From the IMG/VR virus record IMGVR_UViG_3300046819_000086, positions 1 to 39,396 of that record: 39,396 nucleotides of DNA; one strand, 5' to 3'. Below, piece after piece: positions 10,603-31,019 of the stretch (positions are counted from its first letter, which is position 1; each line of letters begins with the position of its first letter). The notes under the pieces are model-generated. The model had not been told where the DNA came from. It worked only from the letters and a program-made list of their open reading frames with translations, and searched no databases. Made by a program: the position numbers and the translations under genes. This DNA comes from a virus.

Positions 10603-11168
10603 GTGATGAAATTATTAAAATTGACACCGGTGTACAAGCACAAACCGGATTACCTGCACCAAAAGTATTTCGTTTGGTACATGAAACTTCGCCTAATCTA
10701 AAAATACCATTAGATGAGTTTGACTTTTCTAATCCTCCTGTAAACCCAAATGAGTTTGCATCGACACTAGTTGAAACATGTAAGTTGCACAAAGGATATG
10801 GCCTGTCTGCAAACCAATGTGGTTTTCCTTATAGAGTCTTTGTGATGGGTGCAGATGATAATTTTGTGGCTTTCTTTAATCCAAAGATCACTCGGTATTC
10901 GGAAGAAACTAAACATATGGTGGAAGGTTGCCTATCTTTCCCATTCCTTGGATTATCCATTACCCGACCTTCAGAGATTGAGGTAGAATACCAAGATTTC
11001 AACGGAGAAACCAGAACGTCAAGATTTACTGGTATATCTGCACGTTGTTTCCAACATGAGCTTGACCACATGAACGGTATCGTATATACTGAAAGATCGA
11101 AACCTCTAGCACTACAACAGGGGTTAAAGAAGCGAACAAAACTTTTAAAGAAATTGAAAATTGCATAA
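10599..11168 (+). CDS. def: peptide deformylase
   Basis: This is a 189-residue enzyme that removes the formyl group from N-terminal formyl-methionine of nascent proteins. The three PDF motifs are visible: GYGLSANQCG near residue 66, EGCLSFP near residue 108 and QHELDHMNG near residue 151, which provide the metal ligands Cys, His, His and the catalytic Glu. Motif 1 has Ser-Ala-Asn in place of the usual Ala-Ala-Pro, as in other phage PDFs. It overlaps gene 46 by ATGA and the following DruA-like gene by one base. The phage also carries an apparent initiator tRNA, so it supplies two steps of the formyl-methionine cycle. Confidence 0.95.
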   Translation: MSDEIIKIDTGVQAQTGLPAPKVFRLVHETSPNLKIPLDEFDFSNPPVNPNEFASTLVETCKLHKGYGLSANQCGFPYRVFVMGADDNFVAFFNPKITRYSEETKHMVEGCLSFPFLGLSITRPSEIEVEYQDFNGETRTSRFTGISARCFQHELDHMNGIVYTERSKPLALQQGLKKRTKLLKKLKIA

Positions 11169-12433
11169 TGGCTACTCCTTTAGAATTTGTAGAAAAACAA
11201 TGGGACGAATGGCAGGCTAACAATCCTGCCGATTCGTTTCCGCATATTGACACTGATAACTTAAAAGAGTTATTGATTAAAGATTTGTCATATGCCTCAC
11301 AGATGGATGTTCGTGAATATACTTTATACCAAAAATGGTGTGAAGTAAAGGAACGATATCCTGTACAGAATGTAAGCACCCTATGGGGTGAAGAATTGCA
11401 GATGGTTAATCCAGAGCAACAAAAAATCATCGAACAAGTAAAGACCAACTTCTGGGTTCCAGAATACGATGATGATTTTCTAAATCTGAAACCGGTTATG
11501 AAACTGTACAATGGTGAATTGGCAGAAACGTGGAATGCCATTCGTACATTTTCTTCTACCATGAAAAACAATTCTAACATTGGTAGAAACTTGTTCTATA
11601 CATTGACTGATGAAAACACCGGCAAGTATCTTGGTGTTATTTGTATTTCATCAGACTTTTTGGATCTCACACCACGAGATTCTTTTATTGGTTGGCCACG
11701 TGATGTTAAGACACAACAGGGCATGATCAACCACACAGCAATCGGTTCTACTATTGTTCCATTACAACCACTCGGTTTCAATTATATGGGTGGAAAACTT
11801 TTAGCATTGATGTGTCTGTCAGATACAGTCCAGAAGGATTGGAAGCATAAGTATGGAGATACTCTGGTCGGTGTGACAACGACTTCTCTTTACGGTATGA
11901 CTAAATCTGGAGGTTTATCTCAATATGACGGGTTGGAACACTGGCAGAAGATGGGTTTCTCAAGCGGCAGCGTTGCGTTCGAGCCAACAAAGGCGACGAG
12001 TAGAATGGTATATGAGTGGATCAGAGAAAACTATCCAAGAAAATACTTCGAATGGTGGGAAGCAACAAACGAAGCAGGAATGCCCCTCAAACGAGATCAC
12101 AAAAACCGATCACTAAACTTTGCATATAGTAAACTTGGTATTCCTAAGGAACTAATCCGTACCGAACATCAGCGTGGGATTTATTTTTCTCCGTTGTATG
12201 ATAATACACCGGATTACCTACGCAAAGAAATTGGTGATGAACAACTTGTTAAGTCTTTTGACACAAGTGAAGATTCCTTGGCAAACATTTGGAAAACAAA
12301 ATATGCCAAAGGCAGAATCCGTCAATTACAAAAGAAGAATAATGTTTCCAAAGAAACCCTGTTCTACGATGATTTGATTTATCTGTCCTGGCAAGAAACC
12401 AAGGACAAATATTTGCCACAAGTTGGTAGATAA
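11168..12433 (+). CDS. DUF4338/DruA-like protein, copy 1
   Basis: This 421-residue protein shows the DUF4338 pattern that is shared with DruA of the Druantia defence system. The visible elements are GKYLGVICISSDFLDL, PRDSFIGW near residue 170, PLGFNYMGGKLLALM near residue 200, DWKHKYG, and TTTSLYG with SQYDG near residues 235-250. The second copy at 29913-31019 repeats GYNYIGGKLLA, KYG, TTSLYG and SQYDG. The N-terminal 110 residues are unique to this copy. It is translationally coupled to peptide deformylase. Biochemical activity is unknown. The phage version sits with replication genes, so it may act in DNA or RNA metabolism or counter host defence; neither is shown. Confidence 0.65.
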   Translation: MATPLEFVEKQWDEWQANNPADSFPHIDTDNLKELLIKDLSYASQMDVREYTLYQKWCEVKERYPVQNVSTLWGEELQMVNPEQQKIIEQVKTNFWVPEYDDDFLNLKPVMKLYNGELAETWNAIRTFSSTMKNNSNIGRNLFYTLTDENTGKYLGVICISSDFLDLTPRDSFIGWPRDVKTQQGMINHTAIGSTIVPLQPLGFNYMGGKLLALMCLSDTVQKDWKHKYGDTLVGVTTTSLYGMTKSGGLSQYDGLEHWQKMGFSSGSVAFEPTKATSRMVYEWIRENYPRKYFEWWEATNEAGMPLKRDHKNRSLNFAYSKLGIPKELIRTEHQRGIYFSPLYDNTPDYLRKEIGDEQLVKSFDTSEDSLANIWKTKYAKGRIRQLQKKNNVSKETLFYDDLIYLSWQETKDKYLPQVGR

Positions 12434-18122: not shown

Positions 18123-18199
18123 GGGGCTTTAGCTCAGTTGGTTAGAGCAAACGACTCATAATCGTTAGGTCCTGGGTTCAAGCCCCAGAGGCCCCACCA
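18123..18199 (+). tRNA. tRNA with CAT anticodon, tRNA-Ile2 type
   Basis: The canonical cloverleaf has acceptor GGGGCTT with AGGCCCC, D arm GCTC/GAGC, and anticodon stem AACGA/TCGTT with CAT at 18157-18159. T arm and encoded CCA are present. The anticodon arm and the T-arm sequence GGTTCAAG resemble E. coli tRNA-Ile2, in which C34 is changed to lysidine so that AUA is read. Elongator Met is the alternative. It stands alone, about 1 kb before the main array. Confidence 0.9.
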
Positions 18200-18205
18200 G
18201 ACACC

Positions 18206-18234
18206 TTGACAAATCTGCGGAAAATAAATATAAT
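18206..18234 (+). promoter_or_regulatory. perfect consensus sigma70 promoter
   Basis: TTGACA (18206-18211), exactly 17 bases, then TATAAT (18229-18234): all twelve consensus positions match. It drives the metallopeptidase. The 40-base leader can pair TTAAC with GTTAA around a loop, and it contains an AAGGA ribosome site. Confidence 0.9.
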
Positions 18235-18282
18235 TGGTGAAGAATTAACTGTAAGATGATAACGCACGGTTAAGGATTACCA

Positions 18283-18801
18283 ATGAAGTTGCGAATATTA
18301 AATTGTCCAGACAAGGAGTTTAAACCGTACTTATATCGTGCGGCAGATTTTTTCGCACGAGAGTTAATAACCAAAACAAGAATCAGAAACAACTGTGTAA
18401 TCACTATAAGGTTTGTATCTGATCTGGAAGTTTTTGGTGCTGCTGAGATCGTTGGGTATAACACCAGAAAACAAGCAAGAGAGTTTTTGGTTGAAATACA
18501 TCCTGGTTTAGGTGCAAGAACCATATTCGAAACACTAGCACATGAGTTTGTGCATGTGAAACAATATGCGTATAACGAATTGGATGATTGCCTTTCTGTT
18601 TGGAAAGGAACACCAGTAGATTCTGATACAGTTGATTATTGGAATCATCCTTGGGAAATAGAAGCACATGGCCACGAAACTGGTCTAGTAACAAAGTTTG
18701 CAATAAGAGAAAAGTTGTGGGAAGTATTCACAGAATTTAAGAACCCAAGTAGAGTGATAGAAAATTTACCTTTAGGTTGGAAACCAAAAATAAATCTATA
18801 A
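18283..18801 (+). CDS. HExxH zinc metallopeptidase-like protein
   Basis: This 172-residue protein has the zinc-binding motif LAHEFVHVKQY (HEFVH at about residues 87-91) and a downstream WEIEAHGHE (about 124-131) that can supply the third ligand, as in compact SprT-like and gluzincin proteases. Upstream strands (VITIRFVSDLEVFGAAEI) fit the usual edge strand that binds substrate. There is no signal peptide, so it acts in the cytoplasm. It sits behind the only perfect sigma70 promoter in the window, which suggests strong early expression. The target may be a host protein, but no evidence identifies it. Confidence 0.75.
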   Translation: MKLRILNCPDKEFKPYLYRAADFFARELITKTRIRNNCVITIRFVSDLEVFGAAEIVGYNTRKQAREFLVEIHPGLGARTIFETLAHEFVHVKQYAYNELDDCLSVWKGTPVDSDTVDYWNHPWEIEAHGHETGLVTKFAIREKLWEVFTEFKNPSRVIENLPLGWKPKINL

Positions 18802-18807
18802 AAACGC

Positions 18808-18836
18808 TTGATTTACGAAAAAAATACCTATATAAT
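18808..18836 (+). promoter_or_regulatory. sigma70-type promoter for a 46-codon unit
   Basis: TTGATT (18808-18813) and TATAAT (18831-18836) are 17 bases apart. The predicted start is 18842-18844 and the ATG is 18846, so the message is almost leaderless, or the product is a small RNA. Confidence 0.75.
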
Positions 18837-18845
18837 CCTACTATT

Positions 18846-18986
18846 ATGAAAAACTTACTCAAACCCTCCTCGATACAACCGACCATGCATCAGACATGGG
18901 CGGGAGAGTGCCGACTATCATTTAATTATGATAGCATTAGAGCACATGGGGTTTCTGAAGGATGGGATGGAATAACAAAAGTTTAA
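18846..18986 (+). CDS. 46-residue ORF or small RNA unit
   Basis: This short ORF (MKNLLKPSSIQPTMHQTWAG at the start, ending DGITKV) fills a unit with its own promoter and terminator. A perfect 7-bp hairpin, CTATCAT with ATGATAG (18915-18934), lies inside. The length (about 190 bases from start to terminator), near-absence of a leader and internal structure make a regulatory small RNA as plausible as a peptide. The ORF has no ribosome site. A longer reading from 18777 would overlap the promoter and the metallopeptidase gene and is rejected. Confidence 0.45.
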   Translation: MKNLLKPSSIQPTMHQTWAGECRLSFNYDSIRAHGVSEGWDGITKV

Positions 18987-19005
18987 CATCCAAAAAGAAT
19001 CAAAG

Positions 19006-19040
19006 AAACCCCAGAAACCGTAAAGGATCTGGGGTTTTTT
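19006..19040 (+). terminator. intrinsic terminator before the tRNA array
   Basis: The stem AAACCCCAGA (19006-19015) with TCTGGGGTTT (19028-19037) is followed by a T run to 19040. It closes the 46-codon unit and isolates it from the tRNA-array promoter 50 bases downstream. Confidence 0.9.
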
Positions 19041-19091
19041 ATTAGGTGTTGTAAAAATACAACACTTTGGCAGTAAGAAGTAAAATTTGTG

Positions 19092-19119
19092 TTGACATGG
19101 ACGTTGGTTCGTGTATAAT
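19092..19119 (+). promoter_or_regulatory. consensus promoter of the tRNA array
   Basis: TTGACA (19092-19097) and TATAAT (19114-19119) are perfect hexamers with a 16-base spacer. Transcription should start at about 19126, 33 bases before the first tRNA of the array. Confidence 0.88.
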
Positions 19120-19158
19120 ACGAATCTTGTTGTAGTTCTTTAACAATTCGGATTCAGT

Positions 19159-19232
19159 TGAGGTATGGTGTAATGGTAGCACAACGGATTTTGATTCCGT
19201 TAGTCTAGGTTCGAGCCCTAGTACCTCATCCA
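19159..19232 (+). tRNA. tRNA-Gln (anticodon TTG)
   Basis: Acceptor TGAGGTA pairs with TACCTCA. The anticodon stem is ACGGA/TCCGT with TTG at 19191-19193. The CCA is encoded. This CCA and the next four bases also form the 5' arm of a long stem with 19323-19329, so the 3' end of this tRNA may be sequestered until processing. Confidence 0.93.
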
Positions 19233-19329
19233 AACAAAAGCACATTCGGTGAGGCTAACGGTAAGCCTGAGCGGAGTCCGTCTCCAATCGATGCAGGTTC
19301 GAGTCCTGTTCTAGTGTGCTTCTGTTTGG
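19230..19329 (+). ncRNA. tRNA-like structured RNA with a long closing stem
   Basis: CCAAACA (19230-19236) pairs perfectly with TGTTTGG (19323-19329), and AGCACA (19239-19244) with TGTGCT (19315-19320). Together they form a 13-bp stem with a 2x2 internal loop. Inside are a D-arm-like hairpin (AGGCT/AGCCT, loop with GG), a short GGAG/CTCC hairpin where an anticodon arm would be, and a genuine T arm with loop TTCGAGT. No CCA is encoded, and four extra bases separate the T arm from the acceptor strand, so it is not a normal tRNA. It may be a degenerate tRNA or a distinct RNA. Confidence 0.6.
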
Positions 19330-19350
19330 GTCATAACTTAGGAGTTAACA

Positions 19351-19497
19351 ATGAGCGAAAAGCAAAAGTTGTTGGCTGAGATATTAAAATTAAAAATGTA
19401 TTTGGTGAGAAAGGTATCCAGTCATACATTAAGAGTAGAAACACAAGAAGTCCTCGATAGACTTAATGAAATCATTGAGAATATTGAGAAGATGTAA
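19351..19497 (+). CDS. 48-residue helical protein in the tRNA array
   Basis: ATG 19351 follows a TAGGAG ribosome site at ideal distance. The product (starting MSEKQKLLAEILKLKMYLVR, ending NIEKM) is a continuous amphipathic helix with leucine/isoleucine heptads, probably a small coiled coil. The stop is eight bases before tRNA-Ser. No homologue is recognised. Confidence 0.6.
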   Translation: MSEKQKLLAEILKLKMYLVRKVSSHTLRVETQEVLDRLNEIIENIEKM

Positions 19498-19504
19498 AGT
19501 TTAT

Positions 19505-19594
19505 GGAAGCGTGGCAGAGCCCGGTTTATTGCACCTGTCTTGAAAACAGACGATCAGAAATGGTCCGTGAGTTCGAATCTCACCGCTTCCGCCA
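19505..19594 (+). tRNA. tRNA-Ser (anticodon TGA)
   Basis: This class II tRNA has acceptor GGAAGCG with CGCTTCC, TGA at 19541-19543 in loop CTTGAAA, a long variable arm, discriminator G and encoded CCA. It should read all UCN codons, including the TCG codon that dominates in the capsid gene. Confidence 0.95.
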
Positions 19595-19680
19595 ATTACC
19601 GGTCTGGGTTCGCAACCCAGCGTAAACGTCAACGACAGGCGTGACGACCAGTGAGAGAACTGGGCCAATTTAAAGGAGAT
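19595..19680 (+). ncRNA. three-hairpin spacer RNA
   Basis: Consecutive stems are CTGGGTT/AACCCAG (19604-19610 with 19614-19620), CGTCA/TGACG (19627-19631 with 19642-19646) and CCAGT/ACTGG (19648-19652 with 19659-19663). The segment ends with a strong ribosome site (AAAGGAGA) for the mini-ORF that follows. It does not fold as a tRNA. Confidence 0.5.
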
Positions 19681-19684
19681 TAAC

Positions 19685-19732
19685 ATGGACGTAGCAGACT
19701 ATTGGAAGTGGATTCACGATAATGTTCAGTAA
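19685..19732 (+). CDS. 15-codon mini-ORF with strong ribosome site
   Basis: MDVADYWKWIHDNVQ is encoded after AAAGGAGAT at optimal spacing. The TAA stop ends one base before tRNA-Ser(GCT). It may be a real micropeptide, or a translated leader that influences folding or processing of the adjoining tRNA. The product is aromatic-rich and acidic. Confidence 0.4.
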   Translation: MDVADYWKWIHDNVQ

Positions 19733-19733
19733 T

Positions 19734-19823
19734 GGAAAGTGGGCAGGATGGTAATGCAGCGGATTGCTAATCCGTAGAACGTGTAAAAACGTTCACTGGG
19801 TTCGACTCCCAGACTTTCCGCCA
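19734..19823 (+). tRNA. tRNA-Ser (anticodon GCT)
   Basis: This class II tRNA has acceptor GGAAAGT with ACTTTCC, GCT at 19766-19768, a variable arm AACGTG-N-AACGTT, discriminator G and encoded CCA. It reads AGC/AGU. Confidence 0.95.
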
Positions 19824-19825
19824 AT

Positions 19826-19920
19826 GGTAGATAGCACTGGTGTGCGGCGGGATCTTATAAGTCCTGGAGACTGGTCAGATGGGCTGGAACGGTAGGGTTC
19901 GAATCCCTAATCTACTACCA
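19826..19920 (+). tRNA. atypical tRNA-like gene (apparent anticodon TAT)
   Basis: The 95-base element has a 7-bp acceptor (GGTAGAT with ATCTACT, first pair G-T), a perfect T arm (TAGGG/CCCTA) and encoded CCA. Its D region is a 4-bp hairpin GCAC-TGGT-GTGC with no normal D loop. The anticodon stem contains G-T pairs, with TAT at 19856-19858. The variable region is about 27 bases. TAT would be Ile(AUA), but an isoleucine tRNA should not have a long variable arm. It may be a divergent functional tRNA or an RNA that mimics one. Confidence 0.55.
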
Positions 19921-19926
19921 AATAAT

Positions 19927-20001
19927 GTGAGTGTGGCAGAACGGCGATGCAACGGATTGCAAATCCGTATCATGTAGGTTCGAATCCTATCATTCACTCC
20001 A
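19927..20001 (+). tRNA. tRNA-Cys (anticodon GCA)
   Basis: Acceptor GTGAGTG pairs with CATTCAC (one G-T). The anticodon stem is ACGGA/TCCGT with GCA at 19959-19961. The discriminator is T, as in other Cys tRNAs, and CCA is encoded. Confidence 0.95.
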
Positions 20002-20004
20002 AAT

Positions 20005-20081
20005 GCCTCGATGACGGAATTGGTATACGTGTCAGTCTTAGAAACTGAATTCTGAGGGTTCGAGTCCCTCTTGAGGCACCA
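20005..20081 (+). tRNA. tRNA-Leu (anticodon TAG) with a short variable loop
   Basis: Acceptor GCCTCGA pairs with TTGAGGC, and TAG is at 20039-20041. The D arm (GACGGAATTGGTATACGT) is of Leu type. Only five bases (ATTCT) separate the anticodon and T stems, whereas bacterial Leu tRNAs normally have a long variable arm. CCA is encoded. Confidence 0.9.
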
Positions 20082-20088
20082 GTTTAAT

Positions 20089-20164
20089 GCGGAATTAGCT
20101 CAGTTGGTAGAGCACTGTCTTGATAAGGCATAGGTCACTGGTTCAAGTCCAGTATTCCGTACCA
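20089..20164 (+). tRNA. tRNA-Ile (anticodon GAT)
   Basis: Acceptor GCGGAAT pairs with ATTCCGT. GAT is at 20122-20124, with a C-T mismatch at the top of the anticodon stem. D and T arms are normal and CCA is encoded. Confidence 0.93.
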
Positions 20165-20166
20165 AT

Positions 20167-20243
20167 GCGAGTGTAACTCAGTTGGCTAGAGTATCTGACT
20201 TTTAATCAGAGAGTCGTGGGTTCGAGTCCCACCACTCGTACCA
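20167..20243 (+). tRNA. tRNA-Lys (anticodon TTT)
   Basis: Acceptor GCGAGTG pairs with CACTCGT. The anticodon stem is CTGA/TCAG with TTT at 20201-20203. CCA is encoded. It lies two bases after tRNA-Ile. Confidence 0.95.
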
Positions 20244-20249
20244 ATTTAT

Positions 20250-20325
20250 GCTCCCATCGTCTAGAGGCCTAGGACACCAGGTTTTCATCCTGGGTACAGG
20301 AGTTCGAATCTCCTTGGGAGTACCA
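20250..20325 (+). tRNA. tRNA-Glu (anticodon TTC)
   Basis: Acceptor GCTCCCA pairs with TGGGAGT. The anticodon stem is CCAGG/CCTGG with TTC at 20284-20286. CCA is encoded. Confidence 0.95.
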
Positions 20326-20335
20326 TGTTTTAAAT

Positions 20336-20419
20336 GGGGCAGAAGCATCAATGGTGATGCAGTGGATTGTAAATCCGCCGTCTCTGACACGACTGGTTCG
20401 ATTCCAGTATGCCCCACCA
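20336..20419 (+). tRNA. tRNA-Tyr (anticodon GTA)
   Basis: This class II tRNA has acceptor GGGGCAG with ATGCCCC (last pair mismatched), GTA at 20369-20371, a variable arm CGTCTCTGACACG, and encoded CCA. Confidence 0.94.
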
Positions 20420-20423
20420 GTTT

Positions 20424-20500
20424 CACGATCAGACCATGGAGGGGGTGTGGTGTTTACCATCATTCTAGATATCTTGAGGTTCGAGTCCTCTGCTGATCAC
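20424..20500 (+). ncRNA. tRNA-like element without CCA
   Basis: GATCAG (20427-20432) pairs with CTGATC (20493-20498) as an acceptor-like stem, and a T arm (GAGG-TTCGAGT-CCTC) is intact. The middle lacks a normal D arm and has a hairpin GTGGT/ACCAT with a four-base loop in place of the anticodon arm. No CCA follows; the next bases are ACTTTTT. It looks like a second member of the tRNA-like group seen at 19230-19329, or a decayed tRNA. Confidence 0.5.
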
Positions 20501-20507
20501 TTTTTAT

Positions 20508-20584
<77 letters not shown>

Positions 20585-20810
20585 GAATTCTGCTGGAAAC
20601 AGAATGGGTTTGCTCAGACCCTTAGGTGAGAGTCGGTTATCTGTCCGTTAACATGGTGGTTTTCTATGTCCTGGATCCTTAAACGTAGACTTGTTTGGTG
20701 TGCTAAGTTCAGAACACTGGTTCGTGGGGTTACTCTTATATTCCACCTGTCTCGCTTTAGACTGTCTTCCCGCAAGGAAGAAGGTATTTCCAGTACCATA
20801 GCACTATTTT
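20585..20810 (+). ncRNA. 226-nt structured RNA between tRNA-Asp and tRNA-Ala
   Basis: No ORF with a ribosome site is present. Stems visible by eye: ATTCTG/CAGAAT (20587-20592 with 20600-20605), directly stacked on GGGTTT/AGACCC (20606-20611 with 20616-20621); ACATGG/CTATGT with a 7-base loop (20651-20669); TCTTCC/GGAAGA (20765-20770 with 20776-20781); GGTA/TACC (about 20783-20797). A long-range stem GTGCTA (20700-20705) with TAGCAC (20799-20804) closes the second half. The element fills the whole space between two tRNAs, so tRNA processing would release it. T4 has RNAs C and D in its tRNA cluster in a similar setting; no sequence match is claimed. Confidence 0.65.
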
Positions 20811-20884
20811 GGGCTGTTAGTTAAATGGGATAACATCGGCTTTGCAAGCCGAGATTGAGAGTTCGATTCTCTCACGGTCCACCA
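20811..20884 (+). tRNA. tRNA-Ala (anticodon TGC)
   Basis: Acceptor GGGCTGT pairs with ACGGTCC (two G-T pairs). The anticodon stem is TCGGC/GCCGA with TGC at 20843-20845. CCA is encoded. Confidence 0.93.
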
Positions 20885-20892
20885 GTTTTAAT

Positions 20893-20969
20893 CTCTGATT
20901 AGCTCAAGCAGGTAGAGCACGTGGTTTGGGACCACGAGGTTGCAGGTTCGAGGCCTGTGTCAGAGACCA
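20893..20969 (+). tRNA. tRNA-Pro (anticodon TGG)
   Basis: Acceptor CTCTGAT pairs with GTCAGAG, with C1-G72 as expected for bacterial Pro. TGG is at 20927-20929. CCA is encoded. Confidence 0.94.
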
Positions 20970-20974
20970 CTTTC

Positions 20975-21049
20975 GGTAATGTAGCATAATGGCAGTGCGC
21001 CTCCTTCATACGGAGTAAAGTGTTAGTTCGACTCTAACCATTACCACCA
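20975..21049 (+). tRNA. tRNA-Met elongator type (anticodon CAT)
   Basis: Acceptor GGTAATG pairs fully with CATTACC, so position 1-72 is a normal pair. The D stem has C11-G24. The anticodon stem CTCC/GGAG carries CAT at 21007-21009. These traits exclude an initiator and separate it from the Ile2-like tRNA at 18123. CCA is encoded. Confidence 0.88.
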
Positions 21050-21193
21050 ATCTCATTCTCACTTACAGGGGAATTAAAATACTTTCTGTAGGCGATTGGT
21101 TATCGAAATTAACCCGCAATAGTACCTCGTTAAGGAAACTCGGCAGGTGGAGTCGTTAGGTCTTGAAGGTGAGATTTCAAGATTATACACCAT
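21050..21193 (+). ncRNA. 144-nt structured RNA between tRNA-Met and tRNA-Arg
   Basis: An 8-bp closing stem TCTCACTT (21057-21064) with AGGTGAGA (21167-21174) encloses about 100 bases. Inside are ACAG/CTGT (21065-21068 with 21086-21089), a compound hairpin GCG-ATT-GGTTA with TAACC-CGC (21092-21117), and ACCT/AGGT enclosing GTTAAGGAAACTCGG. This is a compact multibranch fold. No ORF is present. It is released if RNase P cuts before tRNA-Arg and 3' processing follows tRNA-Met. Confidence 0.65.
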
Positions 21194-21273
21194 ACCTCGT
21201 TAGCTCCAATTGGACTTAGAGCGAGCGGCTACGGACCGCAAGGTTGGGAGTTCGAATCTCTCACGGGGTGCCA
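21194..21273 (+). tRNA. tRNA-Arg (anticodon ACG)
   Basis: Acceptor ACCTCGT pairs with ACGGGGT. The anticodon stem is GCGG/CCGC with ACG at 21231-21233, which needs host TadA to make inosine. The D loop is large. Discriminator G and CCA are encoded. Confidence 0.92.
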
Positions 21274-21278
21274 GTAAT

Positions 21279-21352
21279 TTCCCAGTGGTGTAATGGCAGC
21301 ATACGGGTCTCCAAAACCCTTGGTCGCAGTTCGAGTCTGTGCTGGGAAGCCA
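21279..21352 (+). tRNA. tRNA-Trp (anticodon CCA)
   Basis: Acceptor TTCCCAG pairs with CTGGGAA. The anticodon stem is GGGT/ACCC with CCA at 21311-21313. Discriminator G and 3' CCA are encoded. Trp tRNAs are uncommon in phages. Confidence 0.94.
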
Positions 21353-21375
21353 ATTATTATAACAAGGAGTATGAA

Positions 21376-21849
21376 ATGCGTAAAGCAATTAATATCGATG
21401 AAGTGAAAGCATACATCGAATCGCAAGGCCCGAATACAAAGATTTATATCGGTGGTGATTCGGAACGCTTTGCTATCGGTAAAGATTGGTATGCAGATTA
21501 TACTCTTTGTGTAGTTGTTCACAAAGATGGAAATAACGGATGTAAGATTTTTGGTGAAGTTCAGAGAGAAAGAGTATTTGATACGAAGAAAGATAAACCT
21601 CGTATGCGGTTAATGACCGAAGTCTATAAAATCGCTGAACTATATCTTAAACTTGCAGAAGTGTTGGAAGACCGTGAAGTACAAGTTCACTTGGATATTA
21701 ACCCCAATGAAATGCACGGTTCGAGTTGCGTTATTAACGAAGCGGTTGGATATATTAGAGGTATGTGTAATGTAATACCGCTTGTTAAACCTAACGCATT
21801 TGCTGCCTCTTATGCCGCAGATAGATTGAAGGAAGTATTGGCAGCGTAG
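21376..21849 (+). CDS. YkuK-type RNase H-fold protein
   Basis: The protein has 157 residues from ATG 21376, preceded by AAGGAG; upstream in-frame codons lie inside tRNA-Arg/Trp and are rejected. IYIGGDSER (about residues 23-31) contains the first catalytic-type Asp of the RNase H fold. HLDINPNEMHGSSCVINEA then leads to KPNAFAASYAADR near the C-terminus, matching the YkuK (DUF458) pattern. The family is predicted to cleave nucleic acid, but substrates are unknown. It is encoded inside the tRNA array, so a role in maturing or trimming these RNAs is attractive but only inferred. Confidence 0.75.
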   Translation: MRKAINIDEVKAYIESQGPNTKIYIGGDSERFAIGKDWYADYTLCVVVHKDGNNGCKIFGEVQRERVFDTKKDKPRMRLMTEVYKIAELYLKLAEVLEDREVQVHLDINPNEMHGSSCVINEAVGYIRGMCNVIPLVKPNAFAASYAADRLKEVLAA

Positions 21850-21951
21850 TACAGACCCCCATGGGACACAAAGCATGGTGAAACAAAAGAGTGCGAGAAA
21901 GTAGAATGGCCAGTTCGAAAAGTTGGCGCCGGAAACATAACCGGCATTGAT
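21850..21951 (+). ncRNA. about 100-nt structured spacer RNA
   Basis: Two adjacent hairpins fill the 3' half: GCCAGTT/AGTTGGC with loop CGAAA (21909-21927) and GCCGG/CCGGC (21928-21932 with 21941-21945). Upstream, CATG repeats (about 21860 and 21875) can pair. There is no ORF. The element ends a few bases before tRNA-His. Confidence 0.5.
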
Positions 21952-22026
21952 GGAGTCGGTAGTTCAATGGTAGAACGGCGGATTGTGATTCCGTATATGA
22001 GGGTTCGATTCCCTTCCTTCTCCCCA
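21952..22026 (+). tRNA. tRNA-His (anticodon GTG)
   Basis: GTG is at 21985-21987 and the anticodon stem is GCGGA/TCCGT. The extra 5' G (21952) faces C73, the bacterial His identity pair. Two acceptor positions (T4-T69, C5-T68) are mismatched, which is unusual for a functional tRNA. CCA is encoded. Confidence 0.87.
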
Positions 22027-22028
22027 TC

Positions 22029-22102
22029 GGGTCTTTAGTTTAATGGTAGAACACCACTCTTACAAAGTGGATACGATAGTTCGATTCTATCAAGACCCAC
22101 CA
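22029..22102 (+). tRNA. tRNA-Val (anticodon TAC)
   Basis: Acceptor GGGTCTT pairs with AAGACCC. The anticodon stem is CCACT/AGTGG with TAC at 22061-22063. The encoded ACCA (22099-22102) is also the start of a perfect 19-bp stem with 22227-22245. Confidence 0.95.
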
Positions 22103-22245
22103 TAGGGAAGTGCATTACTGAATATACTTGGTTCAACTAGTCATTGTACCAACTACGTTCAAGTAGGGTAAAAATATGTAAGCACACCGTCAATTCGGTG
22201 GTTACATCTGCTGACTACAGTTCCTATAATGCACTTCCCTATGGT
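22099..22245 (+). ncRNA. structured RNA closed by a perfect 19-bp stem
   Basis: Bases 22099-22117 and 22227-22245 are exact reverse complements over 19 positions. The loop region folds further: TTGGT/ACCAA (22128-22132 with 22148-22152), CTAC/GTAG with a GTTCAA loop (near 22154-22167), and a tall hairpin ATGTAA-CACCG with CGGTG-TTACAT (22176-22207). The stem begins at the ACCA tail of tRNA-Val, so the tRNA 3' end and this RNA compete for the same bases. No protein-coding signal is visible. Confidence 0.75.
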
Positions 22246-22393
22246 AGGAGCAGAGTCCAGTGGGACGGACAACCAGAGATTAGTAGCGAAACACCGACCA
22301 TCAATCGGCGAGTAACGAAACATCTTTTTGGTAAACGGAGTGGCGGGACGGGGTGATGCCCAGATGTGTCCACACCGGCCATAACAATTTAAT
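22246..22393 (+). ncRNA. second structured segment before tRNA-Phe
   Basis: Smaller stems are GTCC/GGAC (22256-22267), CCGA/TCGG near 22306-22319, and GGTG/CACC enclosing ATGCCC and GTGTCC near 22350-22376. It directly continues the 19-bp hairpin element. Whether the two form one RNA is undecided. The + strand has only a weak ORF here, without a ribosome site. Confidence 0.4.
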
Positions 22394-22469
22394 GCAACTG
22401 TAGCTGATGTGGTCATAGCAGGCGGCTGAAGACCGTCGGAAGTTGGTTCGATTCCAACCGGTTGCACCA
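22394..22469 (+). tRNA. tRNA-Phe (anticodon GAA)
   Basis: Acceptor GCAACTG pairs with CGGTTGC. The anticodon stem is GGCGG/CCGTC with GAA at 22428-22430. CCA is encoded. Confidence 0.94.
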
Positions 22470-22470
22470 T

Positions 22471-22545
22471 GCTCCCATAGTTTGAACGGCAAAACAAATC
22501 CATGGTAAGGATTAGACGATGGTTCGACTCCACCTAGGAGCACCA
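22471..22545 (+). tRNA. tRNA-Thr (anticodon GGT)
   Basis: Acceptor GCTCCCA pairs with TAGGAGC (one C-A mismatch). The anticodon stem is AATCC/GGATT with GGT at 22504-22506. CCA is encoded. It lies one base after tRNA-Phe. Confidence 0.92.
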
Positions 22546-22546
22546 C

Positions 22547-22575
22547 TTGACATTATATAAGTGTTGTGTTAGTAT
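22547..22575 (+). promoter_or_regulatory. possible internal promoter of the tRNA array
   Basis: TTGACA (22547-22552) is a perfect -35. At 17 bases the -10 is only TAGTAT, and TATTAT lies three bases further on. It would reinforce transcription of tRNA-Arg(TCT) and what follows. This is a weak to moderate call. Confidence 0.45.
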
Positions 22576-22584
22576 TATATCTTT

Positions 22585-22661
<77 letters not shown>

Positions 22662-22664
22662 AAT

Positions 22665-22749
22665 GCGAGTGTGGTGAAATAGGTAAACACAAGAGACTTA
22701 AAATCTCTCGGCGAAGGCCTTGTCGGTTCGATTCCGACCACTCGCACCA
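22665..22749 (+). tRNA. tRNA-Leu (anticodon TAA)
   Basis: This class II tRNA has acceptor GCGAGTG with CACTCGC, TAA at 22699-22701, a normal long variable arm (CGGCGAAGGCCTT), and encoded CCA. It contrasts with the short-armed Leu(TAG) of the same array. Confidence 0.95.
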
Positions 22750-22766
22750 ATTTCTAGGAGAACAGT

Positions 22767-22895
22767 ATGCATGGTTTCATTGTTGGTTTGTTCGGTGGCA
22801 TGTTAATCACATACGCCTTCCTCCATCCAGAAACAGTAAAAATGTTATATGGTAAATTAGTGGTACAAGTAAAAAAATTATTCGGTAAGAAATAA
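22767..22895 (+). CDS. 42-residue single-pass membrane protein
   Basis: ATG 22767 follows TAGGAGAA. Residues 3-19 (GFIVGLFGGMLITYAFL) form one hydrophobic segment, followed by a short linker and a basic amphipathic helix (VKKLFGKK at the end). The basic tail suggests the C-terminus faces the cytoplasm. No family is recognised. Confidence 0.65.
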   Translation: MHGFIVGLFGGMLITYAFLHPETVKMLYGKLVVQVKKLFGKK

Positions 22896-22904
22896 CAAAA
22901 CGTA

Positions 22905-22933
22905 TTGACTCTAGCATACATATAGTGTACAAT
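22905..22933 (+). promoter_or_regulatory. sigma70-type promoter inside the tRNA array
   Basis: TTGACT (22905-22910) and TACAAT (22928-22933) are 17 bases apart. The predicted start is a few bases before tRNA-Gly (22948). It provides a second transcription entry for the distal array, which includes GroES and the initiator-like tRNA. Confidence 0.7.
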
Positions 22934-22947
22934 ATGTTTTTTTAAAT

Positions 22948-23021
22948 GCGGAAATAGTTTAGTGGTAAAATGAAACCTTGCCAAGGTTTAGTTGAGAGTT
23001 CGATTCTCTCTTTCCGCTCCA
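22948..23021 (+). tRNA. tRNA-Gly (anticodon GCC)
   Basis: Acceptor GCGGAAA pairs with TTTCCGC. The anticodon stem is AAACC/GGTTT with GCC at 22980-22982. CCA is encoded. Confidence 0.95.
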
Positions 23022-23038
23022 AGTTTCGGAGTTTTTTG

Positions 23039-23230
23039 ATGGTGAAATCTAAAAAGAAAAAAGAAGGAGTTGAAACTGTGTTGAAAGGTAATCATTTAAC
23101 AGTTACAACTAAACCTAACGGTTCCGTAAATCTTTCTTGGGATTGGGATGCTTTGTTAAAAGAAGTTGTGCAAGCAACCGCAGTCGGTCAACCGGTCAAA
23201 AAAGAAACAAAGAAAAAAACAAAGAAGTAA
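23039..23230 (+). CDS. small lysine-rich hypothetical protein
   Basis: The protein has 63 residues from ATG 23039 with a GGAG site; the longer reading would start inside tRNA-Gly. Lysine clusters at both ends (VKSKKKKEG and KKETKKKTKK) flank a short central domain (GNHLTVTTKPNGSVNLSWDW, then a helix LLKEVVQATAV). Nucleic-acid binding is plausible from charge. The stop is one base before tRNA-Thr. Confidence 0.6.
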   Translation: MVKSKKKKEGVETVLKGNHLTVTTKPNGSVNLSWDWDALLKEVVQATAVGQPVKKETKKKTKK

Positions 23231-23231
23231 C

Positions 23232-23307
23232 GCTGCTTTAGCTCAGTTGGTAGAGCAACTGATTTGTAATCAGTAGGTCGTCAGTTCGAATCCGACAAGC
23301 AGCACCA
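23232..23307 (+). tRNA. tRNA-Thr (anticodon TGT)
   Basis: Acceptor GCTGCTT pairs with AAGCAGC. The anticodon stem is ACTGA/TCAGT with TGT at 23265-23267. CCA is encoded. A structured RNA starts at the very next base. Confidence 0.95.
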
Positions 23308-23547
23308 AACCGATCATCCTGGTTATGGGGTGGTAGAATGTGCAGAGTTTCGTGTTCTTTGCATATTTGACTGTGAATTAACACAGCCTGTTACATGATA
23401 GTACCTAACTGCCCATCGGTTAGGATTACGAAACAATATCCTGTGGGGGTTCTTGCTAGATATAGGGTGGGCCGATTCAATGCGGTGGTTTCTAACAGAG
23501 TGGATGTCCAATTCACTTCCTAGTGGGAATCTAGGTCACCGCTCCAT
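23308..23547 (+). ncRNA. 240-nt two-domain structured RNA between tRNA-Thr and tRNA-Asn
   Basis: Domain 1 is closed by AACCGAT (23308-23314) with ATCGGTT (23415-23421). It holds CATCC/GGGTG, TGCAGAG/CTTTGCA and CTGTG/CACAG hairpins. A linker hairpin AGGAT/ATCCT follows (about 23422-23442). Domain 2 is closed by GCGGTG (23482-23487) with CACCGC (23537-23542) and contains CCTAG/CTAGG (23519-23523 with 23531-23535). The RNA abuts tRNA-Thr and ends five bases before tRNA-Asn, so processing of both tRNAs would release it. No known RNA family is recognised. Confidence 0.7.
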
Positions 23548-23622
23548 TCCCCAGTAGCTCAGCGGTAGAGTAGTTGACTGTTAATCAATTGGTCCGTGGT
23601 TCGATCCCACGCTGGGGAGCCA
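23548..23622 (+). tRNA. tRNA-Asn (anticodon GTT)
   Basis: Acceptor TCCCCAG pairs with CTGGGGA. The anticodon stem is GTTGA/TCAAT with GTT at 23580-23582. Discriminator G and CCA are encoded. Confidence 0.95.
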
Positions 23623-23641
23623 AACAACTAGAAAGGTAATT

Positions 23642-23884
23642 ATGATTCGCCCATTGAGTAATAAGGTTATTGTTGAACGTATTGCATCAGAAAAAGAATC
23701 TTCAGGCGGTATCATCCTGAAATACACAGATGGTCCAGACAAAGCAAAGATTATTGCAATTGGTCCTGATGTGACAGAAGTTGCTGTTGGTGAAATTGCT
23801 CTTATCAATTGGAACAAAGCAAGTAAAGCTGAAGGCGAAACATATGTAGTATCTGTAGAAGAAATTGTTTTCATCTACGAATGA
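23642..23884 (+). CDS. groES: GroES-like co-chaperonin
   Basis: This 80-residue protein opens with IRPLSNKVIVERI, the Cpn10 start. The mobile loop EKESSGGIILKY (about residues 17-28) carries GGIIL, the tripeptide region that docks to GroEL. It lacks part of the roof hairpin and is shorter than E. coli GroES (97) and T4 gp31 (111). In T4 the phage co-chaperonin is needed for folding gp23. It is encoded inside the tRNA array and ends five bases before the initiator-like tRNA. Confidence 0.9.
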   Translation: MIRPLSNKVIVERIASEKESSGGIILKYTDGPDKAKIIAIGPDVTEVAVGEIALINWNKASKAEGETYVVSVEEIVFIYE

Positions 23885-23889
23885 TTGAT

Positions 23890-23963
23890 AGCGGGTTAGA
23901 TTAAAGGTAAATCACTGGACTCATAATCCAGAGCTGTTGGTTCGACTCCTTCACCCGCAACCA
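23890..23963 (+). tRNA. initiator-like tRNA-fMet (anticodon CAT)
   Basis: CAT is at 23922-23924. Position 1-72 is a mismatch (A-A), the D stem has A11-T24, and the anticodon stem is CTGGA/TCCAG with two of the three G-C pairs. The 3' end CCGCAACCA is like E. coli tRNA-fMet. The first two traits are hallmarks of bacterial initiators. The T stem has two T-T mismatches, which may make automatic callers miss or down-score it. Confidence 0.82.
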
Positions 23964-23969
23964 AACAAA

Positions 23970-24043
23970 GCGGCGGTAGTTTAATGGTAAAACTGAAGAT
24001 TTCCAATCTTCTGTCCTGAGTTCGATTCTCAGTCGCCGCTCCA
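23970..24043 (+). tRNA. tRNA-Gly (anticodon TCC)
   Basis: Acceptor GCGGCGG pairs with TCGCCGC. The anticodon stem is GAAGA/TCTTC with TCC at 24002-24004. CCA is encoded. It is the last tRNA of the array. Confidence 0.95.
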
Positions 24044-28565: not shown

Positions 28566-29916
28566 GGATTATCTACGCAAGGTAATCCCATTTCTGTCGC
28601 CAGATTATTTTAGTGATAGTGTAGAAAGAACAATTTTCAATGAGATTGTCCAATTCACGGAAACTTACAATAACCCGCCAACGACTGAAGCGGTTGGATT
28701 GGCCGTCAAAGAAAAGAGAAATCTCACTGCTGAAGAAGTGCAGAAGTGTGAAAGTTATCTACAGGAAATTGGAGATTCTTCATACGAAAAACCCCAAATT
28801 CAATGGATTGTTGACAAGACCGAAAAGTTTTGCCAAGAGAAAGCCATCTATAACGCTGTATTGGGGTCTATTTCTATCCTTGACGGGAAAGACAAAACAC
28901 ACGACAAAGGTTCTATTCCCAAGATACTATCAGACGCCTTAGCAATTTCTTTTGATAGTTCTGTTGGCCACGATTATCTGGACAATTCAGATTCTCGTTA
29001 TGAGTTTTATCATCGTAAAGAAGAACGTATCCCGTTTGATATTGACCTATTGAATAAGATCACCAAGGGTGGTCTTCCAAACAAAACTCTAAACATTGCA
29101 CTTGCCGGCACCGGTGTCGGTAAGTCTTTGTTCATGTGCCATGTTGCCGCATCTTGTTTGGTGCAAGGCAAGAATGTACTATATATTACCTTGGAAATGG
29201 CGGAAGAAAAAATCGCCGAACGAATTGATGCGAATTTGTTGAATGTAACAGTTGACGAACTTATAGAATTACCTAAGGATCTTTATGATAAGAAGGTAGC
29301 TAGGGTGCGTGAAAAGACAACAGGTAAGTTGATCATCAAAGAGTACCCTACTGCATCGGCTTCAACGATACACTTTAGGACTCTATTAAATGAGCTTAAT
29401 CTCAAGAGGAACTTTGTTCCTGATATTATCTTTATCGATTATCTTAACATATGTTGTTCTAGCCGTCTCAAAACTGGCGCTAATGTTAATTCCTATACAT
29501 ATGTTAAAGCCATTGCGGAAGAACTTCGTGGTCTGGCGGTGGAGCAGTCAGTACCTATTGTTAGTGCTACCCAAACTACTCGGTCAGGATATACAAGTAG
29601 TGATCCCGGTCTTGAAGATACTTCAGAATCATTTGGTCTACCTGCAACAGCAGATTTCATGTTCGCACTTGTTAGTTCCGAAGAATTGGAAGAACTAGGT
29701 CAGATAATGATCAAGCAGTTGAAGAATCGTTATAATGATCCAACGTTCCACAAACGATTCACAATTGGCATTGATCGATCAAAGATGCGTTTATTTGATA
29801 TTGAGCAATCAGCACAAATTGGACTTGCGGATGCAGGACATTCAGATAAACCTCTGAACACATTTGGTACACGAGAAAAATCTGAGAAAAAGAACTTTGG
29901 TGGATTTAAAGTATGA
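28522..29916 (+). CDS. 41: replicative helicase gp41 (DnaB-like)
   Basis: This 464-residue protein (T4: 475) has an N-terminal helical domain, then the RecA-type ATPase with Walker A AGTGVGKSLF near residue 195, TLEMAEEKIAERIDA near 225, and Walker B DIIFIDYLNICCSSR near 310. It unwinds the lagging strand template and partners with primase gp61 (not in the window). It overlaps the preceding ORF by 44 bases and the DruA-like gene by ATGA. Confidence 0.95.
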   Translation: MRLEQTILKNLIHNEDYLRKVIPFLSPDYFSDSVERTIFNEIVQFTETYNNPPTTEAVGLAVKEKRNLTAEEVQKCESYLQEIGDSSYEKPQIQWIVDKTEKFCQEKAIYNAVLGSISILDGKDKTHDKGSIPKILSDALAISFDSSVGHDYLDNSDSRYEFYHRKEERIPFDIDLLNKITKGGLPNKTLNIALAGTGVGKSLFMCHVAASCLVQGKNVLYITLEMAEEKIAERIDANLLNVTVDELIELPKDLYDKKVARVREKTTGKLIIKEYPTASASTIHFRTLLNELNLKRNFVPDIIFIDYLNICCSSRLKTGANVNSYTYVKAIAEELRGLAVEQSVPIVSATQTTRSGYTSSDPGLEDTSESFGLPATADFMFALVSSEELEELGQIMIKQLKNRYNDPTFHKRFTIGIDRSKMRLFDIEQSAQIGLADAGHSDKPLNTFGTREKSEKKNFGGFKV

Positions 29917-31019
29917 GTTTGACTTATGATGATGCACTCCATTGTGCAAAGGTATTTGAAGATTACTTTGGTAATTTTGAACGTATCGACCAATACATGA
30001 AGGATCAAAAGTTGGCATCCCTTTCTGAGATGCCTTCTAATCCTTTGTTTGCACCAGAAGATGATTTGTTCTCAGATTTCTCCATGCATCCGAATGACAT
30101 GGACATTGAAGTATTGGAGATTCCAACAGAAACTTGGGAAACACTCCTTAACATAACATCATCACATATTAACATTGCACCAGTTGGTCGTAATGTGAAA
30201 TTGGCTGTTCGTGAGAAGAAAACGGAAAAGTTTTTAGGTTTCATTCGACTTGGTTCTCCTGTTATCAATTGTAAACCCCGCAATGAAATGCTGGGTCAAG
30301 TATTCACACAAGACCTGGCCTTGGCTCAAAGATTCAACAACTCGGCAATGATGGGTTTTGTAATTGTACCATCACAACCATTTGGTTACAACTATATCGG
30401 TGGAAAACTGCTTGCTGCAATTTGTTGTTCCCATACCGTTCGTGAGATAGTCAATAAGAAGTATGGTATGAATATGTGTCTGTTTGAAACCACCAGTCTC
30501 TATGGCAGTTCCAAACAAGTATCACAGTATGATGGCATGAAACCATACATTCGCTACAAGGGACTCACCGAAAGTGACTTCCTACCGATGATGCATGGCA
30601 AACCATACTCCGACCTTCGTGACTTTGTACAAAGCAAAGTCGGACCTTTGGTTGAAGAAACTGCTTCCAGTAAAAAGTTGAAGATTTCAATGAAGATCAT
30701 TTCTTTGACAAAGGCTGCACTTAAAGGTACCGATGCAGGTATCAAGTTCAATGAAACCATAGAAAATGCCAAGAAACTGACTGAACAGAAACGTTATTAC
30801 ATTTCAAACTATGGTTTTAAGAACTATATTGATTATGTTAATGGCAAGACTGATGTTTTGGTACCAGATGAAAACTATGAGAAGTTTGAATTGAGTAATA
30901 TTATCGAATGGTGGAAGAAGAAAGCAACCAATCGTTATGAAACATTAAAATCTGAAGGCAGACTCCGCACAGAACTTGAGGTTTGGACATCCGGTAAAGA
31001 CATAGATATTATCAGATAA
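29913..31019 (+). CDS. DUF4338/DruA-like protein, copy 2
   Basis: This 368-residue protein is paralogous to 11168-12433. The shared core runs from TEKFLGFIRLGSPVINCKPRNE (about residue 105), through PFGYNYIGGKLLAAICCSHTV near 155, KKYG and ETTSLYG near 192, to SQYDGMK. The N-terminal 90 residues are acidic and unlike those of copy 1, and the C-terminal third is lysine-rich. Translation is coupled to helicase gp41 by an ATGA overlap. The invariant RD/IGW motif of copy 1 is degenerate here, so the activities may differ. Confidence 0.62.
   Translation: MSLTYDDALHCAKVFEDYFGNFERIDQYMKDQKLASLSEMPSNPLFAPEDDLFSDFSMHPNDMDIEVLEIPTETWETLLNITSSHINIAPVGRNVKLAVREKKTEKFLGFIRLGSPVINCKPRNEMLGQVFTQDLALAQRFNNSAMMGFVIVPSQPFGYNYIGGKLLAAICCSHTVREIVNKKYGMNMCLFETTSLYGSSKQVSQYDGMKPYIRYKGLTESDFLPMMHGKPYSDLRDFVQSKVGPLVEETASSKKLKISMKIISLTKAALKGTDAGIKFNETIENAKKLTEQKRYYISNYGFKNYIDYVNGKTDVLVPDENYEKFELSNIIEWWKKKATNRYETLKSEGRLRTELEVWTSGKDIDIIR

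What the first reader, a model, noticed from the sequence alone, without database searches (positions are those of the whole stretch)
18123..24043. tRNA set covering all 20 amino acids in about 6 kb
I read 27 canonical tRNAs with assignable anticodons: Ile2, Gln, Ser x2, Cys, Leu x2, Ile, Lys, Glu, Tyr, Asp, Ala, Pro, Met, Arg x2, Trp, His, Val, Phe, Thr x2, Gly x2, Asn and fMet. Every amino acid is represented. Nearly all have encoded CCA. Many phages carry tRNAs, but a complete set with initiator is rare. It would protect translation if host tRNAs are degraded or cleaved during infection.
Basis: partly seen in the sequence, partly recalled or inferred. Interest (0 to 1): 0.88.

Follow-up and report, generated by a model that had tools for sequence, protein, structure and literature searches.

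The report
Complete phage tRNA set, two-armed tRNA

Summary
Confirmed. Window 18123-24043 of a 39.4-kb T4-like phage contig holds 27 tRNA genes above Rfam's cut-off, on one strand, covering all 20 amino acids, with an initiator-like and an Ile2-like CAU tRNA. Wobble rules leave only CGG unread. Two perfect sigma-70 consensus promoters lie in front, so early expression is likely. A complete set is not new: T5 and XacN1 have one, as do at least ten other IMG/VR fragments seen here. The protective role is plausible, with published precedents, but not shown here.

The new part is a 28th gene, 19826-19920: a long-armed tRNA with anticodon UAU (reads AUA). Its relatives are widespread in phages and occur in some bacterial genomes. 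In a scan that left the variable arm free, 98 of 100 long-armed tRNA-Ile(UAU) carry GAU in the middle of the arm's loop, usually CAGAUUA or CAGAUAA; others have CUGAUAA, the anticodon loop of tRNA-Ile(GAU). The stem covaries. Best guess: UAU decodes AUA while the GAU arm attracts isoleucyl-tRNA synthetase, bypassing lysidine. Charging is untested; plain short-armed UAU tRNAs also exist in phages, the window's own copy is atypical, and leucine charging is the main rival.

The parts
18123..18199 (+). tRNA(CAT), Ile2-like
   Evidence: (71.7 bits), 68: anticodon arm CGA-CTCATAA-TCG, G1-C72
18206..18234 (+). sigma-70-like promoter, TTGACA-17-TATAAT, 12 of 12
19092..19119 (+). sigma-70-like promoter, TTGACA-16-TATAAT, 12 of 12, in front of the main tRNA block
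19159..19232 (+). tRNA-Gln(TTG)
19505..19594 (+). tRNA-Ser(TGA)
19734..19823 (+). tRNA-Ser(GCT)
19826..19920 (+). two-armed (class II) tRNA-Ile(UAU): anticodon loop CTTATAA; second arm CTGGT-CAGATGG-GCTGG, then a 5-nt linker (AACGG) and the T arm
   Evidence: Rfam tRNA-Sec only 29.5 bits, below its cut-off of 47
19927..20001 (+). tRNA-Cys(GCA)
20005..20081 (+). tRNA-Leu(TAG)
20089..20164 (+). tRNA-Ile(GAT)
20167..20243 (+). tRNA-Lys(TTT)
20250..20325 (+). tRNA-Glu(TTC)
20336..20419 (+). tRNA-Tyr(GTA), weakest match (37.1 bits)
20508..20584 (+). tRNA-Asp(GTC)
20811..20884 (+). tRNA-Ala(TGC)
20893..20969 (+). tRNA-Pro(TGG)
20975..21049 (+). tRNA-Met(CAT), elongator-like (loop TTCATAC)
21194..21273 (+). 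tRNA-Arg(ACG), missed by ARAGORN
   Evidence: (42.9 bits over 21194-21270)
21279..21352 (+). tRNA-Trp(CCA)
21953..22026 (+). tRNA-His(GTG)
22029..22102 (+). tRNA-Val(TAC)
22394..22469 (+). tRNA-Phe(GAA)
22471..22545 (+). tRNA-Thr(GGT)
22547..22575 (+). promoter-like site (10 of 12, extended -10) before Arg(TCT)
22585..22661 (+). tRNA-Arg(TCT)
22665..22749 (+). tRNA-Leu(TAA)
22905..22933 (+). promoter-like site (10 of 12) before Gly(GCC)
22948..23021 (+). tRNA-Gly(GCC)
23232..23307 (+). tRNA-Thr(TGT)
   Evidence: 74.5 bits
23548..23622 (+). tRNA-Asn(GTT)
23890..23963 (+). tRNA(CAT), initiator-like
   Evidence: A1xA72, G2-C71, C3-G70, A11-U24; identical in L001
23970..24043 (+). tRNA-Gly(TCC)

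Best explanation
The region is an early-transcribed tRNA array of a T4-like phage. It supplies a nearly self-sufficient decoding set, so that phage translation continues when host tRNAs are cut, depleted or badly matched (array role about 0.65). Within it, 19826-19920 is a two-armed tRNA. Its normal anticodon arm (UAU) reads AUA on the ribosome. Its variable arm is a second anticodon-like arm with GAU in a 7-nt loop, which I propose isoleucyl-tRNA synthetase reads as the anticodon of tRNA-Ile(GAU), so that the tRNA is charged with Ile without the lysidine step that tRNA-Ile2(CAU) needs (about 0.45). Shown by sequence: the genes, their coverage, the promoter matches, and the conservation and covariation of the second arm in the family. 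Inferred: expression, charging, decoding and the benefit to the phage.
For: Array: 27 genes above cut-off and all 20 amino acids. Only CGG, 14 of 10,983 codons, is unread under extended wobble. Two 12-of-12 sigma-70 promoter matches in front. Against the close relative L001 (polymerase 92% identical in amino acids), several tRNAs differ much more than their flanks yet keep the anticodon: His 64% identical between flanks of 85% and 98%; Glu 60%, Asp 65%. Published: T5-type tRNAs restore infection against retron-Eco7 and PrrC (PMC11555353). Two-armed tRNA: a scan with the variable region left free gave 100 distinct long-armed tRNA-Ile(UAU); 98 have GAU centred in the arm's loop, two (L333, L403) lack it. 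CAGATWA lies in 88 of 105 Ile(TAT) calls (most of these chosen by that motif) and in only 2 of the other tRNAs tallied in the same loci. Loops are also exactly CTGATAA or CTGATTA, and CTGATAA is the commonest anticodon loop of phage tRNA-Ile(GAT), 47 of 97. The second stem covaries: all 4 pairs change on both sides, 90% of cells paired. Five or six bases follow it in 187 of 201, as in a normal variable loop, against mostly 0-2 in Leu and Ser tRNAs. A73 in 168 of 173; C4-G69 in 109 of 173, both listed Ile determinants (PMC9976931). Window and L001 copies differ by compensatory pairs in acceptor, anticodon and T stems while both keep TTATA and GAT.
Against: No expression, charging or codon-reading data. 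The window's own copy is atypical: loop CAGATGG, only 43.7 bits with the family model R1, inside the range of ordinary tRNAs (25-59), where typical members score 60-94. Its link to the family rests on a small subgroup shared with Roseobacter-type genomes. The same array also has an Ile2-like CAU tRNA, which would read AUA if the host modifies it. Short-armed UAU tRNAs without a second arm occur in other phages, including Synechococcus phage B23 and Gordonia phage Boopy, so the arm is not always needed. Position 37 of the mimic loop is mostly U, whereas t6A37 is a determinant for bacterial IleRS (PMC9976931). How IleRS would reach a variable arm is not modelled. Codon matching and stockpiling are not excluded as the array's role.
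Confidence: 0.5

Rival explanations
1. The long-armed UAU tRNA is charged with leucine (or serine) because of its long variable arm and inserts the wrong residue at AUA, like nematode nev-tRNA-Ile(UAU).
For: nev-tRNA-Ile(UAU) has a V-arm and is charged only with Leu in vitro (PMC4300185). A73 suits LeuRS as well as IleRS.
Against: The arm differs from Leu and Ser arms in loop size (7 against mostly 3-4), in its fixed GAU and in the 5-6-nt linker behind it. AUA is a used codon here (93 of 10,983), so misreading it would be costly.
Confidence: 0.2
2. The second arm is a decoy or a shield: the GAU-like loop titrates a nuclease or enzyme that acts on tRNA-Ile(GAU), and has nothing to do with charging.
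For: Phage tRNAs are known to be shaped by anticodon nucleases (PMC10264068); the loop copies an anticodon loop.
Against: It is found almost only on tRNAs whose real anticodon is UAU; a decoy could sit on any tRNA.
Confidence: 0.15
3. The tRNA array serves codon compensation: it adjusts the tRNA pool to the phage's own codon usage rather than replacing damaged tRNAs.
For: The favoured reading for XacN1 (PMC5852040); rare-codon readers AUA and AGA are included.
Against: Single isoacceptors for abundant codons, an initiator and Trp are included too; completeness is not expected from compensation alone. The host is unknown, so it could not be tested.
Confidence: 0.25
4. The array is largely neutral genetic cargo, tRNA genes gained and lost by mobile elements.
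For: Order is shuffled between window and L001; 40 of 80 related loci show none, though many are short fragments.
Against: Many genes remain full cloverleafs with encoded CCA; compensatory changes; anticodon kept while bodies change.
Confidence: 0.1

Closest known systems
tRNA region of Escherichia phage T5 (AY543070, 28.0-41.6 kb)
   Same: All 20 amino acids, fMet and Ile2 tRNAs, tRNA-like stable RNAs between them, several promoters
   Different: Spread over about 13 kb instead of 6 kb, different phage family, AUA read by Ile2(CAU) only; no long-armed Ile(UAU) annotated
Xanthomonas jumbo phage XacN1 tRNA set
   Same: All 20 amino acids (PMC5852040)
   Different: 26 canonical tRNAs in each terminal repeat, suppressor tRNAs, tRNA-processing enzymes; no two-armed tRNA in the passages read
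nev-tRNA-Ile(UAU) of nematodes
   Same: UAU anticodon on a tRNA with a variable arm
   Different: Nuclear genes of an animal; arm resembles that of tRNA-Leu; charged with Leu in vitro (PMC4300185)
Bacterial tRNA-Ile2(CAU) with lysidine (TilS)
   Same: Reads AUA as Ile
   Different: Short variable loop; C34 must be modified before it is charged with Ile (PMC11938285)
tRNA-Ile(UAU) of lactobacilli and of Mycoplasma mobile
   Same: UAU anticodon read as Ile without lysidine
   Different: To my knowledge short variable loop and an IleRS that accepts UAU; known here only from titles cited in PMC9976931 and PMC11938285

Membership tests
Complete phage tRNA array (T5 type) | tRNAs for all 20 amino acids in one block | tested here: met
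Complete phage tRNA array (T5 type) | Initiator tRNA present | tested here: met
   23890-23963: 1x72 mismatch, G2-C71, C3-G70, A11-U24; but only two G-C pairs at 29-31
Complete phage tRNA array (T5 type) | Strong early promoters | tested here: met
   two 12-of-12 consensus matches; activity not testable
Complete phage tRNA array (T5 type) | Mature, charged tRNAs in infected cells | not testable with these tools
   needs tRNA sequencing
Two-armed class II tRNA-Ile(UAU) (type described here) | Anticodon UAU in a standard 7-nt loop | tested here: met
   CTTATAA at 19826-19920
Two-armed class II tRNA-Ile(UAU) (type described here) | Variable arm with GAU centred in a 7-nt loop, 5-6-nt linker behind | tested here: met
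   CTGGT-CAGATGG-GCTGG then AACGG; same loop in Levilactobacillus phage ENFP1; L001 copy TAGATGG
Two-armed class II tRNA-Ile(UAU) (type described here) | Separates from ordinary tRNAs in the family covariance model R1 | tested here: not met
   window copy 43.7 bits, ordinary tRNAs up to 59; subgroup alignment A3 supports it. R1 is a crude model with 2.96 effective sequences
tRNA-Sec (RF01852) | Score above Rfam's cut-off and UCA anticodon | tested here: not met
   29.5 bits against 47; anticodon UAU
nev-tRNA | Charged with leucine | not testable with these tools
   needs aminoacylation assay
tRNA-Ile2(CAU) | Ile2-type anticodon arm at 18123-18199 | tested here: met
   CGA-CTCATAA-TCG; lysidine itself not testable

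The most novel reading that the evidence does not exclude
A widespread class of phage (and some bacterial) tRNAs has two anticodon arms. One (UAU) is for the ribosome. The other (GAU) is shown to isoleucyl-tRNA synthetase, which separates charging identity from decoding within one tRNA and lets AUA be read as Ile without lysidine.
Probability: 0.4. Interest if true: 0.9.

Novelty: new variant of a known kind. Interest (0 to 1): 0.62.

Why it matters
A complete set makes this T4-like group a good natural case for testing whether phage tRNAs replace damaged host tRNAs. The two-armed tRNA, if charged as proposed, would be a natural split of the two jobs of an anticodon, recognition by the synthetase and reading of the codon, and a second route to AUA decoding besides lysidine or agmatidine. 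It would also give a ready-made design for tRNAs whose codon is chosen freely of their amino acid, and it corrects the reading of genes now annotated plainly as tRNA-Ile(TAT).

Tried and rejected
Chance or pseudogene array: rejected, E-values to 1e-14, encoded CCA, compensatory changes. tRNA-Sec for 19826-19920: below cut-off, wrong anticodon. CAGATWA as a by-product of the search pattern: tested by a scan without it and by the control CTGATWA. RNase P RNA for 22235-22390, suspected from short motifs: no Rfam hit at E up to 10. Host group as the reason for plain or two-armed UAU: hosts overlap (Synechococcus phages have both), so not supported. Covariance model R1 to prove the window copy: does not separate it. 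Literature searches for such a tRNA found only nev-tRNAs; the library lacks most subscription papers, so absence is weak evidence.
Full report
Observation. The window is a linear IMG/VR virus record of 39,396 bases. It is from a T4-like phage: major head protein, polymerase, clamp, UvsX-like recombinase, replicative helicase and late sigma factor match their PHROG families strongly. Rfam's tRNA model finds 27 genes above cut-off between 18123 and 24043; ARAGORN also finds 27. They share 26. All 20 amino acids are covered and all genes carry CCA. The three CAT genes look like Ile2, elongator Met and initiator.

Decoding reach. With the usual bacterial wobble rules and U34 reading whole four-codon boxes, only CGG (14 of 10,983 codons) has no reader; with strict wobble 87% of codons are read. 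This is a rule-based estimate, not a measurement.

Expression. Two perfect sigma-70 consensus promoters lie at 18206-18234 and 19092-19119, with weaker ones before Arg(TCT) and Gly(GCC). The region has 25 promoter-like sites where shuffles give 14.9 +/- 3.8. Early transcription by host polymerase is inferred.

How unusual. T5 has all 20 amino acids with fMet and Ile2; XacN1 has all 20 (PMC5852040). Among loci fetched here at least ten other IMG/VR fragments have all 20, though many of those were found by a tRNA pattern and so favour tRNA-rich phages. Within the polymerase relatives of the window numbers run from 0 to 29; long contigs such as G013 (167 kb) and G008 (164 kb) have 29 and 25, and G009 (106 kb) has 1. 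The complete set is therefore a new member of a known kind.

Turnover. L001 is the nearest relative (polymerase 92% identical in amino acids). Ile(GAT), Ala, initiator and Gly(TCC) are identical in both, whereas His, Glu, Asp, Phe, Leu(TAG) and Thr(TGT) are 60-69% identical, for His inside flanks that are 85-98% identical. Gene order is shuffled. The anticodon set is kept while bodies are replaced or diversified. This fits, but does not prove, selection by tRNA-attacking defences (PMC10264068, PMC11555353).

The 28th gene. 19826-19920 folds as a long-armed tRNA with anticodon UAU. Six distinct homologues in seven related loci carry CAGATTA or CAGATAA as the loop of the variable arm. A scan of IMG/VR with that loop gave 120 hits, 82 of them called tRNA-Ile(TAT). 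Because that scan chose the loop, two checks followed. A control with the exact tRNA-Ile(GAU) loop, CTGATWA, also returned 15 long-armed tRNA-Ile(TAT). A scan fixing only a D arm, TTATA and a T arm gave 103 distinct tRNAs: 100 long-armed, of which 84 have CAGAT[T/A]A, one CTGATGA, and thirteen mostly TAGAT-type loops that keep GAU in the middle; only L333 and L403 lack it. The count of thirteen was read by eye from the printed sequences. A second D-arm type gave 86 short-armed and 2 long-armed tRNA-Ile(UAU) among 91 distinct hits, so two kinds of UAU tRNA exist in phages.

Architecture. In 50 diverse members all four pairs of the second stem change on both sides and 90% of cells are paired. 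Where GAU is centred, C32 (161 of 171) and A38 (164 of 171) are kept, as in tRNA-Ile(GAU), whereas position 33, which is U in a decoding loop, is A in 158 (many of these sequences were selected by the loop motif, so the fractions lean towards it). The linker to the T stem is 5-6 nt in 187 of 201; in Leu and Ser tRNAs it is mostly 0-2 (for the Ile set the 7-nt loop was assumed in that script). One long-armed tRNA, L285, matches ordinary tRNA-Ile(GAT) genes of phages by its second arm, linker and T arm. The picture is of an isoleucine tRNA with an extra anticodon arm placed before its own; that origin is an inference.

Spread. Isolates with it are phages Thalassa (Vibrio), Phosso (Sinorhizobium), S-SRM01 and S-SKS1 (Synechococcus), DLP_6 (Stenotrophomonas), LpeD, Lpa804 and ENFP1 (lactobacilli); phage 3-521 has the arm without GAU. 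One scan of bacterial genomes gave 55 places, nearly all such tRNAs, in Roseobacter-type bacteria, Acidobacteria tRNA arrays, Nostoc and others.

The window copy. Its loop is CAGATGG and its arm CTGGT/GCTGG. It aligns with a subgroup with a short D arm from Ruegeria, Roseovarius, Sulfitobacter and virus L138, in which the TTATA anticodon loop and GAT are shared. The L001 copy keeps GAT and shows compensatory changes in three stems. But the general model R1 gives it only 43.7 bits, among ordinary tRNAs. I take it as a divergent, probably functional member.

Mechanism. Bacteria read AUA with tRNA-Ile2(CAU), whose C34 must become lysidine before it is charged with Ile (PMC11938285). IleRS determinants include A73, the anticodon with its position 34, and in E. 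coli C4-G69 (PMC9976931). A UAU tRNA should therefore be a poor substrate for such an enzyme. I propose that the second arm supplies G34-A35-U36 to IleRS while the first arm reads AUA. Not shown: charging, decoding, geometry. Leucine charging is the main rival because nematode V-arm tRNA-Ile(UAU) is leucylated in vitro (PMC4300185). Short-armed UAU tRNAs in Synechococcus phage B23 and Gordonia phage Boopy show that the arm is not always needed.

Verdict. The reported finding is real and of known kind; its protective role is plausible and unproved. The two-armed tRNA is the part worth following.

Noticed in passing
window 22096-22248: A 153-nt hairpin that begins in the 3' end of tRNA-Val, with a 16-bp perfect closing stem; -58.4 kcal/mol, z -6.9.
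   Followed up: partly
window 22235-22390; L001 1864-2011: Conserved non-tRNA element (79% identical) at different places in the two arrays, apparently covarying stems; resembles RNase P RNA in short motifs but no Rfam hit.
   Followed up: partly
window 19233-19330; L104 14060-14131: tRNA-like RNA with acceptor, D and T arms but no normal anticodon arm, shared with another phage; T5 has similar tRNA-like RNAs.
   Followed up: partly
window 21125-21190; L357 5538-5605: Short conserved element in the spacer before Arg(ACG), 81% identical in another phage contig.
   Followed up: no
window 19596-19669, 20420-20505, 21863-21946: Spacers conserved at 84-87% in L001 without any known family.
   Followed up: no
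window 21367-21849 and 23642-23884: RNase H-like protein and a GroES-like co-chaperonin encoded between the tRNA genes; peptide deformylase at 10599-11168.
   Followed up: partly
window 11168-12433 and 29913-31019: Two proteins matching Pfam DruA (Druantia) in a phage genome.
   Followed up: no
L001 783-877; L543 683-758; L552 297-370: Phage tRNAs whose T loop reads ATCGT instead of TTCRA, T54 and A58 seemingly swapped.
   Followed up: no
L588, L592, L593: Acidobacterial genomes (Acidobacteriaceae, Terriglobia, Pyrinomonadaceae) with 24-25 tRNAs within 8 kb that include the long-armed tRNA-Ile(UAU).
   Followed up: no
L550 38-111; L611 195-268; L609 194-268: Short-armed tRNA-Ile(UAU) in Gordonia, Synechococcus and crAss-like phages.
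   Followed up: partly
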